DNA of 64,000 bases from a bacterium MS4 (GTDB lineage: Bacteria; Bacillota; Clostridia; Oscillospirales; Acutalibacteraceae), in the NCBI GenBank assembly GCA_000752215.1, contig CCFG01000014.1, forward strand, positions 132,990 through 196,989, given 5' to 3'. Below the pieces are notes generated by a model that had not been told where the DNA came from, ran no database searches, and saw only the letters and a list, made by a program, of their open reading frames with translations. This document shows positions 10,832 through 27,337 of this stretch, piece by piece. How positions within the stretch are numbered: the first letter of the stretch is position 1; each line of letters starts with the position of its first letter. A program made the position numbers and the translations under genes.

Positions 10832-10866
10832 GGAGGTCTGAAAAGCGAAACGCTTTTCAGACCTCC
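10832..10866. terminator. Bidirectional terminator hairpin
   Basis: A perfect 16-pair inverted repeat (GGAGGTCTGAAAAGCG, loop AAA, and its complement) between convergent genes, followed on the plus strand by GTCTTTTGATTT. Its right arm overlaps the stop codon of the glycosyltransferase at 10857, so that gene ends inside its own terminator. Confidence 0.8.
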
Positions 10867-12113
10867 GTCTTTTGATTTAAAAAACAATAATAATAGCCGC
10901 GGGTACTTTTTATCTCAGCCATCCCCAGACTCCCGAAAAGCGTTTTGATACGCGCATGAAGCTCTTCCGTCGGCGCGGTACAGACAATCTGCCCGCCGTC
11001 CTTCAGAATTCCTTTCAGGTCACCGATCAGTCCCTCCAGGTCGCCGACTTGATCCATTTCGCTTTCCAGAACGATGATGTCATAGGTTCTTGAACCGAAC
11101 AGAGGCACCAGAGCGTCCATATCCGCATGCGCACAATATTCGCAGATGGAGGAAAGGTCGGCCATGTTATCTTCCCTTCCGGAAAGATAATACAGCCTGA
11201 TATCGGCCGCGCCCTTTTCCTTTAATAAATTTTTGATCTGAAGCAGGGTCGCGCCGCAGGACATGCCGATTCCCAGAATGTTTTTGCCGCTGCCGCCGTC
11301 GTAGTTCAGCACGGTCAGAAGCGTACCGTCGGTAAAAGCGGCCTGCCACGGATGGACGCCGAATTTGCTGATAAACAGGTTCAGATTTCTTTGCGCCAGA
11401 TTGTTTTTTGCATATTCCGCATTAAAGGTCACGGAACCGAAATGATGCACAAACGTGTCTTTCGCCAAAATGAGTTTATAACCCTTTCTGCGGATGCGGA
11501 AGCTGATGGCGTCGTCGTCATAGGCCCCGGGGTTAAAATCCTCGTCGAATCCGCCCAGCTCCTTCTGCAGGCTTGTGCGGAACAGGCAGGTATAGGTGAC
11601 AAGCTTCATCTTCTCTTCCCAGAGGCACGGGTTGCTCACGTTGTACGCCTGAGCGATCCGCTGCATTTCAGGAATCGACTGATAGTGAAGGTCCACCTGC
11701 TGCCCGTTGGAGGACGTGCTGCACACGGGCACGACCATTCCGATTTTTTCATCGGATTCCATACAGGCGATCAGGTTGTCAAGCCAGTGGGCGGTAACGA
11801 CAATGTCGTTGCTCAGATTCAGGGTATATTTTCCCTGTGCGATTCTGAACCCGCAGTTAACTGCTTTGTCCACCCCGACATTTTCGGGAAAACTGATTTT
11901 TTTGCTGTTGGGCAGGCTGTTGAAGAACTCTTCCGTCCCGTCCGTGGAGCCGTTATTGACGGTAATCAGTTCAAAATCGATATGGGAGGTATATTGGAAC
12001 AGGCTTTCCACACACAGCTTCGTATAATTGAGATGGTTGTAAGCGAGCAGGACAACGCTTACGACCGGCGTGTGCCGGTCTTCCGGTTTTGCTGGTACAG
12101 GTTCCGTATTCAT
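10857..12113 (-). CDS. GT2 glycosyltransferase fused to a Rossmann (methyltransferase-like) domain
   Basis: About 418 residues. The N-terminal 270 residues form a GT-A family 2 domain: VSVVLLAYNH, NNGSTDGTEEF, LSNDIVV as the DXD-equivalent, and a GGFDEDF / DDDAISFRIRRKGY acceptor region as in rhamnosyl-type GT2 enzymes. The last 150 residues resemble a class-I methyltransferase Rossmann fold (ILGIGMSCGATLLQIK, then YDIIVLESEMDQV), though SAM use is not certain. The ATG at 12113 is chosen over an upstream frame that overlaps rfbH. Last gene of the sugar/collagen locus; likely adds a residue to the spore-surface glycan. Confidence 0.75.
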   Translation of the reverse strand: MNTEPVPAKPEDRHTPVVSVVLLAYNHLNYTKLCVESLFQYTSHIDFELITVNNGSTDGTEEFFNSLPNSKKISFPENVGVDKAVNCGFRIAQGKYTLNLSNDIVVTAHWLDNLIACMESDEKIGMVVPVCSTSSNGQQVDLHYQSIPEMQRIAQAYNVSNPCLWEEKMKLVTYTCLFRTSLQKELGGFDEDFNPGAYDDDAISFRIRRKGYKLILAKDTFVHHFGSVTFNAEYAKNNLAQRNLNLFISKFGVHPWQAAFTDGTLLTVLNYDGGSGKNILGIGMSCGATLLQIKNLLKEKGAADIRLYYLSGREDNMADLSSICEYCAHADMDALVPLFGSRTYDIIVLESEMDQVGDLEGLIGDLKGILKDGGQIVCTAPTEELHARIKTLFGSLGMAEIKSTRGYYYCFLNQKTEV

Positions 12114-12144
12114 CACCGCTTTCTTGTGCCGGTCCCGGCTGAAA

Positions 12145-25594: not shown

Positions 25595-27241
25595 TTACAG
25601 GCTTACCTCAGTGATAACGATATTGGCCTGAACAGGTGTCGTCGCAAAACCAACGGTCGCTCCAGTGACATTGGTAAGTGCAATAGTAGCCGGGACTGCT
25701 CCTACGGTTACCAATACGCTTCCATTCAGCTGCCCTGTTACGATCGGGGACGAGCCAAGGACACCGCCTCCACCATTTAACTCTACTGCAAAGGATACAG
25801 TCGTAGCGGCTTCCGCACCATCCGTTGCCACCCACCAAGCTACATAATAATTTCCGGGGGCGGTAATCGTAAATTCACCAGTTACCGCACTATAGGTGAT
25901 GTTGGGGCTTACGTCAGTTGTGAGCGTATCAAAAATCACATTGGCTCCGTCGGCAACGGTACCTACACCATCTCCAAGAAGCTGTGCCTGGATTCCCAGC
26001 AAAGCGACGGCCGGGCCGGTGGGACCTGTCGGGCCCGTCGGGCCAGTAGGACCTGTGTCACCCGTTGGGCCTGTTGGACCTGTAGCCCCGGTCGGACCGG
26101 TAGCGCCTAATGCGCCCGTAGGACCGGTAGCGCCGGTTGGACCTGTGTCACCTGTGGCTCCTGTCGGGCCGGTAGCGCCTAATGCGCCCGTGGGACCCGT
26201 GTCACCCGTTGGGCCGGTGGGACCTGTAGCCCCTGTTGGACCTGTGGCGCCTAACGCGCCCGTAGGACCGGTAGCGCCGGTTGGGCCAGTGTCACCTGTA
26301 GCCCCTGTCGGACCGGTAGCGCCTAATGCGCCCGTAGGACCGGTAGCGCCGGTTGGACCTGTGTCACCTGTGGCTCCTGTCGGGCCGGTAGCGCCTAACG
26401 CGCCCGTAGGACCGGTAGCGCCGGTTGGGCCGGTGTCACCTGTAGCTCCTGTCGGGCCGGTAGCGCCTAACGCGCCTGTAGGACCTGTCGGACCCGGGTC
26501 GCCGGTTGGGCCTGTCGGACCTGTAGCACCGAGTGCTCCGGTTGGACCGGTTGGGCCTGCTACCCCTGTCGGACCTGTGTCACCTGTAGCCCCTGTTGGG
26601 CCGGTAGCGCCTAACGCGCCTGTAGGACCTGTCGGACCCGGATCGCCGGTTGGACCTGTCGGGCCGGTGGGACCGAGTGCTCCGGTTGGGCCGGTTGGGC
26701 CTGCTATCCCTGTCGGACCTGTGTCACCGGTAGCCCCTGTTGGGCCGGTAGCGCCTAACGCGCCTGTAGGACCTGTCGGACCCGGATCGCCTGTAGGACC
26801 TGTCGGGCCGGTGGGACCGAGTGCTCCGGTTGGGCCTGTCGGACCTGCCGCCCCTGTCGGGCCGGTGGGACCTGCTGCTCCGGTTGGACCTGTCGGACCA
26901 AGTGCTCCTGTCGGGCCAGTTGGGCCTGCTGCTCCAGTTGGGCCTGTCGGACCTGTCGGACCTGGATCGCCAGTTGGACCAGTCGGACCGGTTGGGCCGG
27001 TGGGACCGCCAGACGGACCGATAGGACCTGTGGGGCCAGTTGGGCCGGTGGGACCGCTAAAGCCCATAGGGCCCATGGGTCCAGCAGGGCCCCGCGGGCC
27101 TCTCGGGCCGGTGGGACCCGGGCAGCCGCAGCCGCACGGGTCTTTGCAACAGTTATCCAGGCATCCGTTATGATAAATTGTCATTTCTGGATTAAACCCG
27201 TCACCCGCATCATAAGGCGGGCATCTTCTGCTATTTGACAT
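25595..27241 (-). CDS. Collagen-like protein with Cys-rich N-terminus and C1q-like C-terminal domain
   Basis: About 548 residues. The first 45 are Cys-rich ([27 protein letters not shown]), offering disulfide or anchoring sites, then about 375 residues of GPTGPTG(A/D)(P/T) repeats. The final 110 residues are a beta domain ([17 protein letters not shown]) whose fold pattern equals the N-terminal domain of the other two collagens, placed here at the other end. The ATG at 27241 follows GGGAG at eight bases; a frame to 27256 has none. It is the first gene after the SigK-like promoter, so probably the main structural protein of the locus. Confidence 0.85.
26012..27129 (-). repeat. Collagen Gly-X-Y coding repeat
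   Basis: Periodic DNA encoding [24 protein letters not shown] blocks. The GAL-containing triplets distinguish it from the two downstream collagen genes. Confidence 0.85.
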
Positions 27242-27309
27242 AATCAAAACTCCCATGTATCAAATTTGTTTACGAACATTAGCATGAACAAACACTTTAC
27301 GCTTTTTAA

Positions 27310-27337
27310 TATAATATGTGGTGACCCGCGAAAAGTG
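27310..27337 (-). promoter_or_regulatory. SigK-like mother-cell promoter for the collagen/glycan locus
   Basis: Minus strand CAC (27337-27335), a 16-base spacer and CATATTATA (27318-27310) agree with the SigK pattern (AC, N16-17, CATAnnnTA). It lies about 70 bases ahead of the first collagen gene. SigK drives late mother-cell coat and exosporium genes, which fits the products. Found by eye only. Confidence 0.5.

What the first reader, a model, noticed from the sequence alone, without database searches (positions are those of the whole stretch)
10857..27337. Spore-surface collagen locus with its own glycan-synthesis and attachment genes
Three long GPT-repeat proteins, two peptide-type glycosyltransferases and a CDP-deoxysugar pathway lie on one strand in one run. 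Seen: gene order, repeats and motifs. Known: Bacillus BclA carries an anthrose-capped glycan on such repeats, with its sugar genes separate and dTDP-based. Inferred: this Clostridia system decorates its collagens with a different, CDP-derived sugar. The combination in one 16.5-kb unit looks undescribed to me.
Basis: partly seen in the sequence, partly recalled or inferred. Interest (0 to 1): 0.75.

Follow-up and report, generated by a model that had tools for sequence, protein, structure and literature searches.

The report
Spore-collagen locus making a branched sugar
A spore-forming bacterium carries, in one gene run, collagen-like spore-surface proteins, the enzymes that probably attach sugars to them, and a pathway for an unusual branched sugar otherwise known mainly from the outer coats of Gram-negative bacteria.

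Summary
Observation confirmed: 12 same-strand genes (27256-10857) encode three collagens (two with BclA/BclB-type ends), two peptide-type glycosyltransferases, a CDP-sugar pathway and a third glycosyltransferase, with a sigma-K-like site at 27310-27336. Where a sister cassette has a probable reductase, this one has an aminotransferase and a GNAT, so I predict an acetamidoethyl-type branch. Ten such cassettes, all Bacillota where named, form one YerE clade (SH-aLRT 99); six lie beside collagen genes. Sigma-K-like sites precede cassette genes in 10 of 13 scanned loci of this clade plus its sister, against 1 of 39 other YerE loci; the window and two congeners have none before rfbF. Matched control: collagens near YerE in 10 of 34 genomes, near ALS in 0 of the same 34. 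Against: no E3 reductase found; one cassette adjoins pseudaminic-acid genes; one lacks rfbG. Attachment to the collagens and the exact sugar are inferred. New variant of a known kind.

The parts
27310..27336 (-). sigma-K-like site (AC-N16-CATANNNTA) upstream of the first collagen gene
   Evidence: located; loose motif upstream of 23 of 37 collagen ORFs against 52 of 403 other ORFs of the same loci; consensus match, no transcript shown
25595..27256 (-). bclA-like collagen, 553 aa, Cys-rich N terminus, 124 Gly-X-Y triplets, weak BclA_C end
   Evidence: Pfam Collagen 180.8 bits; BclA_C 25.4 bits, below its cut-off of 38
23080..25554 (-). BclA-family collagen, 824 aa, 184 Gly-X-Y triplets, BclA_C C-terminal domain
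   Evidence: PF18573 BclA_C 162 bits, cut-off 38
21347..22780 (-). BclB-type collagen, 477 aa, exospore_TM C-terminal domain
   Evidence: TIGR03721 207.7 bits, cut-off 93.15
20137..21246 (-). GT_A: GT2 domain plus TPR-like helices, predicted to start the O-glycan on collagen Thr
   Evidence: model pLDDT 93.7; best PDB folds SunS/ThuS, E 3e-15; strong family members have a collagen ORF in the stretch read in 29 of 42 loci
19039..20127 (-). GT_B: paralogue of GT_A (56% identical), predicted second transfer
   Evidence: tandem pair in 4 of 4 YerE-bearing genomes of the genus and 0 of 7 others
18147..18944 (-). rfbF: glucose-1-phosphate cytidylyltransferase (makes CDP-glucose)
   Evidence: TIGR02623 324.1 bits, cut-off 300.25
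17062..18186 (-). rfbG: CDP-glucose 4,6-dehydratase
   Evidence: TIGR02622 470.3 bits, cut-off 278.45
15277..17043 (-). YerE-like ThDP enzyme, predicted to add an acetyl branch at C4 of CDP-3,6-dideoxy-4-keto-glucose
   Evidence: best PDB hits 5ahk and 8rph, the latter with the CDG motif reported for JanthE; tree splits YerE-type from ALS with support 100
14595..15314 (-). GNAT acetyltransferase, fused to YerE in two relatives
   Evidence: PF13302 50.1 bits; single ORFs of 840 aa (L093) and 784 aa (L161)
13472..14581 (-). DegT-type PLP aminotransferase, predicted to aminate the branched sugar
   Evidence: Pfam 368.4 bits; nearest solved relatives are perosamine synthetases
12145..13470 (-). 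RfbH: CDP-4-keto-6-deoxyglucose 3-dehydrase (E1)
   Evidence: NF011936 606.7 bits, cut-off 423; E1 structure 3bcx E 3e-137, His at the E1 position
10857..12179 (-). GT2: third glycosyltransferase with a C-terminal domain of alternating strands and helices, predicted to transfer the CDP sugar
   Evidence: last gene of all 10 cassettes; model resembles K4CP and GalNAc-T2; C-terminal Methyltransf_23 hit below cut-off, 20 against 27 bits
10832..10866 (-). terminator-like hairpin overlapping the stop codon of GT2
   Evidence: 16-pair stem, listed by the scan for the plus strand; on the minus strand only a short T run follows

Best explanation
A sporulation-controlled unit that builds and glycosylates the collagen layer of the spore surface. 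In the mother cell sigma-K transcribes the collagens. GT_A and GT_B, peptide-type transferases like C. difficile SgtA, start and extend glycans on the Thr residues of the GPT/GAT/GDT repeats. RfbF, RfbG and RfbH turn glucose-1-phosphate into CDP-3,6-dideoxy-4-keto-glucose. The YerE-like enzyme joins a two-carbon unit from pyruvate to C4, leaving an acetyl branch. DegT aminates that branch ketone and the GNAT acylates the amine, giving a CDP-3,6-dideoxy-4-C-(1-acetamidoethyl)hexose. GT2 transfers it as the terminal sugar. Shown by sequence: families, gene order, conservation, promoter motif. Inferred: every activity, the order of the DegT and GNAT steps, and the collagens as acceptor. Split confidence: spore-surface collagen and glycosyltransferase unit 0.9; branched CDP sugar by YerE 0.8; sugar ends on the collagens 0.7; amino-acyl branch 0.5.
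For: BclA_C and BclB-type domains. SigK gene over cut-off, 302 against 298.65 bits. Sigma-K-like site before the first collagen; loose sites upstream of 23 of 37 collagen ORFs against 52 of 403 others, p 9e-11; strict sites upstream of rfbF in 5 of 9 window-type cassettes against 0.21 expected from shuffles; in the scanned loci 10 of 13 of the window-type plus Clostridium clade against 1 of 39 other testable YerE loci, p 2e-7. GT_A fold like SunS/ThuS; SgtA (GT + TPR, gene beside bclA3) puts beta-O-GlcNAc on Thr of BclA3 repeats (PMC7157674, passages). YerE against ALS: split 100, window type one clade 99; in 34 genomes YerE hits score 826 bits or more and ALS hits under 500. Collagen within 9.1 kb of YerE in 10 of 34 genomes, of ALS in 0 of the same 34, p 0.0009. 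YerE-GNAT fusions in two genomes. The sister clade has an epimerase/dehydratase-family gene in the cassette and no DegT or GNAT there (L101-L104).
Against: No E3 reductase for RfbH: none in the cassette, and the only PF00970 match in the genome is in a dihydroorotate-dehydrogenase B-type protein beside pyrD. G158's cassette lacks rfbG (not sought elsewhere in that genome). Four of ten cassettes have no collagen ORF called in the stretch read (L093-L096). D. nitroreducens has no GT pair at E 1e-40 and its cassette follows pseB, pseC, pseG, pseH and pseI, all over cut-off. A related YerE in C. akagii lies among flagellar genes. Three of four class-sample genomes with a GT pair lack YerE at the threshold. 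DegT is nearest to C4 aminotransferases of unbranched 4-keto sugars. The window, G157 and G158 have no strict site before rfbF and are not in the 13. Relatedness of genomes inflates all p values; some ALS control stretches were cut short by contig ends.
Confidence: 0.68

Rival explanations
1. Two separate CDP sugars are made from one precursor: DegT and GNAT convert CDP-4-keto-6-deoxyglucose to a 4-acetamido-4,6-dideoxy sugar (anthrose-like, but CDP-linked), while RfbH and YerE make an unaminated acetyl-branched 3,6-dideoxy sugar. Both go onto the collagens.
For: DegT's nearest solved relatives are perosamine synthetases, which by their name and established role aminate a 4-keto-6-deoxy sugar; the GNAT resembles PseH weakly, 30.5 bits against a cut-off of 93.1; three glycosyltransferases are present.
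Against: YerE and GNAT are one ORF in two genomes; the cassette ends with one GT2 in 10 of 10 loci; the sister clade has an epimerase/dehydratase-family gene in place of both.
Confidence: 0.22
2. The CDP cassette feeds another polymer (flagellin glycan, cell wall or capsule) and lies next to the collagens by chance or for regulation only.
For: In D. nitroreducens the cassette follows pseudaminic-acid genes and in C. akagii a related YerE lies among flagellar genes; 69 of 80 scanned YerE loci have no collagen ORF in the flank.
Against: Collagens near YerE in 10 of 34 genomes, near ALS in 0 of 34; sigma-K-like sites at stand-alone cassettes, the one in D. nitroreducens included; 8 of 9 other cassette genomes carry the collagen-type GT pair.
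Confidence: 0.13
3. The ThDP enzyme is a plain acetolactate synthase placed in the run by chance.
For: NCBIfam's best model is the ALS large subunit, 508.6 bits against a cut-off of 538.35.
Against: Below that cut-off; two other ALS-type genes are in the genome; clean split of YerE-type from ALS; the nearest structures are YerE-type.
Confidence: 0.03

Closest known systems
C. difficile BclA3 / SgtA
   Same: BclA-type collagen with a GT+TPR glycosyltransferase gene next door, sigma-K controlled bclA genes, glycan on Thr of the repeats (PMC7157674 and PMC3789822, passages)
   Different: One GT beside the collagen there, a tandem pair here; no CDP-sugar cassette is mentioned in the passages seen; the C. 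difficile cap is called a 'novel glycan'
B. anthracis BclA with the anthrose tetrasaccharide
   Same: Collagen-like spore nap protein whose glycan ends in a rare deoxysugar (PMC6947953, passages)
   Different: Anthrose is a 4-acylamido-4,6-dideoxyglucose made by the antABCD operon (passages; that this lies apart from bclA and is dTDP-based is recalled); here the enzymes are CDP-type, with 3-deoxygenation and C-branching predicted
Yersiniose A pathway with YerE (Y. pseudotuberculosis LPS)
   Same: Two-carbon branching of CDP-3,6-dideoxy-4-keto-glucose by a ThDP enzyme (PMC12247030 and PMC4753412, passages)
   Different: No reductase-like gene in the window cassette, an aminotransferase and an acetyltransferase instead; spore former; collagen-linked
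SunS / ThuS peptide S-glycosyltransferases
   Same: Best fold matches of the GT_A model
   Different: They act on bacteriocin peptides (recalled); about 14-18% identity

Membership tests
BclA-family exosporium collagen | Gly-X-Y repeat rich in GPT plus BclA_C or BclB-type end | tested here: met
   PF18573 162 bits (824 aa), TIGR03721 207.7 bits (477 aa); the 553-aa protein only 25.4 bits, below cut-off
BclA-family exosporium collagen | late mother-cell (sigma-K) control | tested here: inconclusive
   motif before the run, enrichment in relatives, SigK gene; no expression data
BclA-family exosporium collagen | located on the spore surface | not testable with these tools
   needs spore proteomics
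SgtA-type collagen glycosyltransferase | GT2 domain with C-terminal TPR, gene beside a collagen | tested here: met
   Pfam GT2 over cut-off, TPR below cut-off; TPR-like helices in the model; collagen in 29 of 42 loci read; homology to SgtA itself not tested
SgtA-type collagen glycosyltransferase | transfers GlcNAc to Thr | not testable with these tools
   biochemical
YerE subclass of ThDP decarboxylases | sequence falls with YerE, not with ALS | tested here: met
   that 5ahk is P. protegens YerE is recalled, and 8rph as JanthE is inferred from its CDG motif
YerE subclass of ThDP decarboxylases | ketone acceptor activity | not testable with these tools
   biochemical
RfbH / E1 3-dehydrase | His in place of the PLP Lys, and iron-sulphur cysteines | tested here: met
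   alignment to 3bcx; the four-Cys ligand set is recalled, and the last ligand follows a 3-residue insertion
RfbH / E1 3-dehydrase | E3 reductase partner | tested here: not met
   none in the cassette; the only PF00970 match in the genome is a PyrK-like protein; other reductase families not searched
Yersiniose pathway | dedicated reductase of the acetyl branch | tested here: not met
   no such gene in the window cassette; an epimerase/dehydratase-family gene in L101-L104
Anthrose pathway | dTDP-linked, antABCD genes | not tested
   only the nucleotide was assessed: CDP enzymes over cut-off

The most novel reading that the evidence does not exclude
A sporulation-specific branch of the YerE family makes a so far unknown CDP-3,6-dideoxy-4-C-(1-acylaminoethyl)hexose, and this is the terminal sugar of O-glycans on spore-surface collagens. 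It would be the first branched-chain deoxysugar known to me on a bacterial spore or protein glycan, with a sister clade in Clostridium using a reduced, yersiniose-like form.
Probability: 0.4. Interest if true: 0.8.

Novelty: new variant of a known kind. Interest (0 to 1): 0.63.

Why it matters
Sugars branched by YerE-type enzymes are described mainly from LPS (PMC12247030, passages). A coherent clade of these enzymes with sigma-K-like promoters, often beside spore collagens, links two separate fields and predicts a concrete sugar on a concrete protein. It can be tested in culturable species by mass spectrometry of spores. It also bears on where the caps of spore-collagen glycans come from: in C. 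[quoted passage not shown]

Tried and rejected
An E3 reductase for RfbH: PF00970 gave one hit in the genome, in a protein with the dihydroorotate dehydrogenase B iron-sulphur domain beside pyrD, so rejected as PyrK. Other reductase families were not searched.

Strict coupling of GT pair and cassette: true in the genus (4 of 4 against 0 of 7, where two of the seven have a single GT) but not in the class sample of 391 genomes, where 3 of 4 pair-bearing genomes lack YerE at the threshold, so not claimed as a rule. G008 has the pair at a contig end and no rfbF over cut-off.

YerE-type hits over 600 bits in the class sample outside the window clade (G495, G318, G504): no collagen in about 20 kb. 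G314 (535 bits) lies on a 3-kb contig with rfbG.

Own fourth collagen on C17 (L081): no GT or cassette gene beside it.

Family sample of rfbF: 26 of 150 genomes over cut-off. In flanks of 1.5 kb, usually with rfbG and often the start of rfbH, so rfbF alone says little.

Rows left out of counts. ALS control: L148, because its genome is not held, so 34 of 35 Bacillota loci (by title) were used. Promoter test: 52 of the 80 scanned loci had a suitable gene start (13 clade, 14 other Bacillota, 25 others); the window, G157 and G158 were tested only. Promoter test: 31 loci picked because they hold or adjoin collagens; the collagen loci L254, L255 and the Paenibacillus ones (L126, L146, L148, L151, L152) were not put in, and ORFs with under 200 nt of upstream sequence were dropped; 23 of those collagen upstream regions, without the Clostridium species and without some inner genes of runs. 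GT-collagen count: 42 loci with a strong GT_A-type match were read; weaker matches were not.

Paper searches on novelty: YerE terms, 7 papers; yersiniose + spore, 4 papers, none on spore glycans by title; YerE-like and gene-cluster terms, 79 papers, 10 listed; spore + collagen-like + CDP-glucose, 0 papers; exosporium and sugar terms, 8 papers. [quoted passage not shown]
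Full report
WHAT IS THERE. On the minus strand, 27256 to 10857, lie twelve ORFs: three collagen-like proteins (553, 824, 477 aa), GT_A, GT_B, rfbF, rfbG, a ThDP enzyme, a GNAT, a DegT aminotransferase, rfbH and a third glycosyltransferase GT2. Gaps run from -40 to +299 nt; within the sugar cassette they are -40 to +18. The collagen runs hold 124, 184 and 55 Gly-X-Y triplets, with Thr third in 93, 153 and 49. Domain evidence ties two of them to spore proteins: BclA_C 162 bits in the 824-aa protein and TIGR03721 (BclB-related exosporium domain) 207.7 bits in the 477-aa protein; the 553-aa protein has only a sub-threshold BclA_C match. 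Nearby window genes include YtaF and a spore YkwD-family protein, both over cut-off. The genome encodes SigK (302 bits, cut-off 298.65) and a fourth collagen on another contig.

THE SUGAR PATHWAY. RfbF, RfbG and RfbH pass their curated cut-offs. RfbH aligns over its length to the E1 structure 3bcx, with the E1 His and with cysteines at the positions I recall as iron-sulphur ligands. The ThDP enzyme is the key. NCBIfam leans to acetolactate synthase, but below cut-off (508.6 against 538.35). The two best PDB hits are 5ahk and 8rph. 8rph shows the CDG motif that PMC12247030 (passages) reports for JanthE, a YerE-like enzyme; that 5ahk is the P. protegens YerE is from memory. In 34 genomes YerE-type hits score 826 to 1064 bits and ALS hits under 500. 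A tree of 117 proteins (quick method, SH-aLRT support only) separates 83 YerE-type from 34 ALS rows with support 100. YerE transfers a two-carbon unit from pyruvate to CDP-3,6-dideoxy-4-keto-glucose (PMC12247030, passages), the compound that RfbF, RfbG and RfbH would supply.

A CONSERVED CASSETTE. One genome-contig scan gave the best 80 of 120 YerE relatives. These ten YerE proteins are one clade (99), sister (98) to those of six Clostridium strains. In L093 and L161 yerE and the GNAT are one ORF (840 and 784 aa). Five loci (L093-L096, L147) carry an extra class I aminotransferase. In L101-L104 of the sister clade an NAD-dependent epimerase/dehydratase-family gene stands in the cassette, and no DegT or GNAT is seen there. 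The simplest reading is that this gene reduces the acetyl branch there, and that amination and acylation replace the reduction here. This is inference: DegT is closest in sequence to perosamine synthetases, and a two-sugar rival remains.

LINK TO COLLAGENS. Collagen ORFs lie in the stretches read for six of the ten cassette loci (window, G157, G158, L097, L147, L161). L093 has an ORF with a similar N terminus by eye, but no Pfam family at E 1e-5, and is not counted. L094 and L095 have no collagen within about 10 kb, yet their genomes carry the GT pair beside collagens elsewhere. D. nitroreducens has no GT pair, and its cassette follows pseB, pseC, pseG, pseH and pseI. Among the 80 scanned loci 11 have a collagen ORF, all of them Bacillota by title (35 of 80), none of the 45 others. 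As a matched control I took the best ALS gene in the same genomes: collagens within 9.1 kb of YerE in 10 of 34, of ALS in 0 of 34 (Fisher p 0.0009; 626 kb against 594 kb looked at). Genomes are related, so the true weight is smaller; on the tree the collagen label needs at least 7 changes among 83 rows, so it is not a single inheritance.

GLYCOSYLTRANSFERASES. GT_A and GT_B belong to a family whose strong members have a collagen ORF in the stretch read in 29 of 42 loci (7 of 11, 16 of 25, 6 of 6 cassette-linked); eight of the 13 misses lie within about 1 kb of a contig end or on contigs under 4 kb. The GT_A model (pLDDT 93.7) matches SunS and ThuS peptide glycosyltransferases best. The closest functional parallel is C. 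difficile SgtA, a GT with C-terminal TPRs encoded beside bclA3, which adds beta-O-GlcNAc to Thr of the repeats (PMC7157674, passages). In the window's genus the tandem pair occurs in 4 of 4 genomes with YerE and 0 of 7 without; eight of nine other cassette genomes have it. In 391 genomes of the class the rule does not hold (pair in 4, YerE over the threshold in one of these). GT2 ends the cassette in 10 of 10 loci, linked to collagens or not, so it is the likely transferase of the CDP sugar. Its model resembles K4CP and GalNAc-T2; its C-terminal part has alternating strands and helices and only a sub-threshold methyltransferase hit.

SPORULATION CONTROL. In C. difficile the sigma-K consensus has AC at -35, and bclA1-3 are sigma-K controlled (PMC3789822, passages). 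The window has AC-N16-CATATTATA at 27310-27336, before the first collagen. Loose matches lie upstream of 23 of 37 collagen ORFs against 52 of 403 other ORFs of the same 31 loci (p 9e-11); strict matches in 12 of 23 selected collagen upstream regions against 0.45 expected from shuffles. Upstream of rfbF, 5 of 9 window-type cassettes have a strict match against 0.21 expected; the window, G157, G158 and L097 have none there, which for the first three would fit read-through from the collagens. Over testable scanned loci: 10 of 13 in the window-type plus Clostridium clade (five of the ten are close Clostridium kin), 1 of 14 other Bacillota, 0 of 25 others (p 2e-7); the one exception (L151) has collagens in its flank. 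The D. nitroreducens cassette has a site too. These are consensus matches, not mapped starts.

WEAK POINTS. No E3 reductase was found, so the electron source for RfbH is unknown. No chemistry, expression or localisation was tested. The YerE donor could be another 2-oxo acid, as in ErwE (PMC12247030, passages). Some cassettes may serve other acceptors: D. nitroreducens beside pseudaminic-acid genes, and a related YerE in C. akagii among flagellar genes. Novelty claims rest on the searches in an open-access library only.

VERDICT. It should be re-described as a spore-collagen glycosylation unit with a YerE-type branched-sugar cassette: a new variant of known kinds.

Noticed in passing
window 22781-23079: The gap before the third collagen holds a 132-base alignment, 85% identical, to the end of the first collagen plus its spacer, probably a remnant of a tandem duplication of the first two collagen genes.
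   Followed up: partly
L093:1887-4409, L161:10001-12355: YerE and GNAT in single ORFs of 840 and 784 aa.
   Followed up: yes
L094:12418-13581 and the like in L093, L095, L096, L147: Extra class I aminotransferase in half of the cassettes, perhaps supplying a special 2-oxo acid donor for YerE.
   Followed up: partly
L100-L104: Five Clostridium strains carry a YerE cassette with sigma-K-like sites before rfbF; collagen genes are called in its flank in L101, L102 and L104.
   Followed up: partly
L126, L146, L148, L151, L152: Several Paenibacillus genomes have YerE within about 10 kb of collagen-repeat proteins with other N-terminal types.
   Followed up: partly
L096:1199-7769: D. nitroreducens: pseB, pseC, pseG, pseH and pseI directly before the CDP cassette.
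   Followed up: partly
L174: G158 lacks rfbG in its cassette but has a second GT2-like gene (55% identical) between two collagens.
   Followed up: no
L081:8121-10493: Fourth collagen of the genome, similar to the 824-aa one, without GT or cassette genes beside it.
   Followed up: partly
window 29065-30951: One protein joins a methyl-accepting chemotaxis signalling domain to a phosphonate-binding domain.
   Followed up: partly
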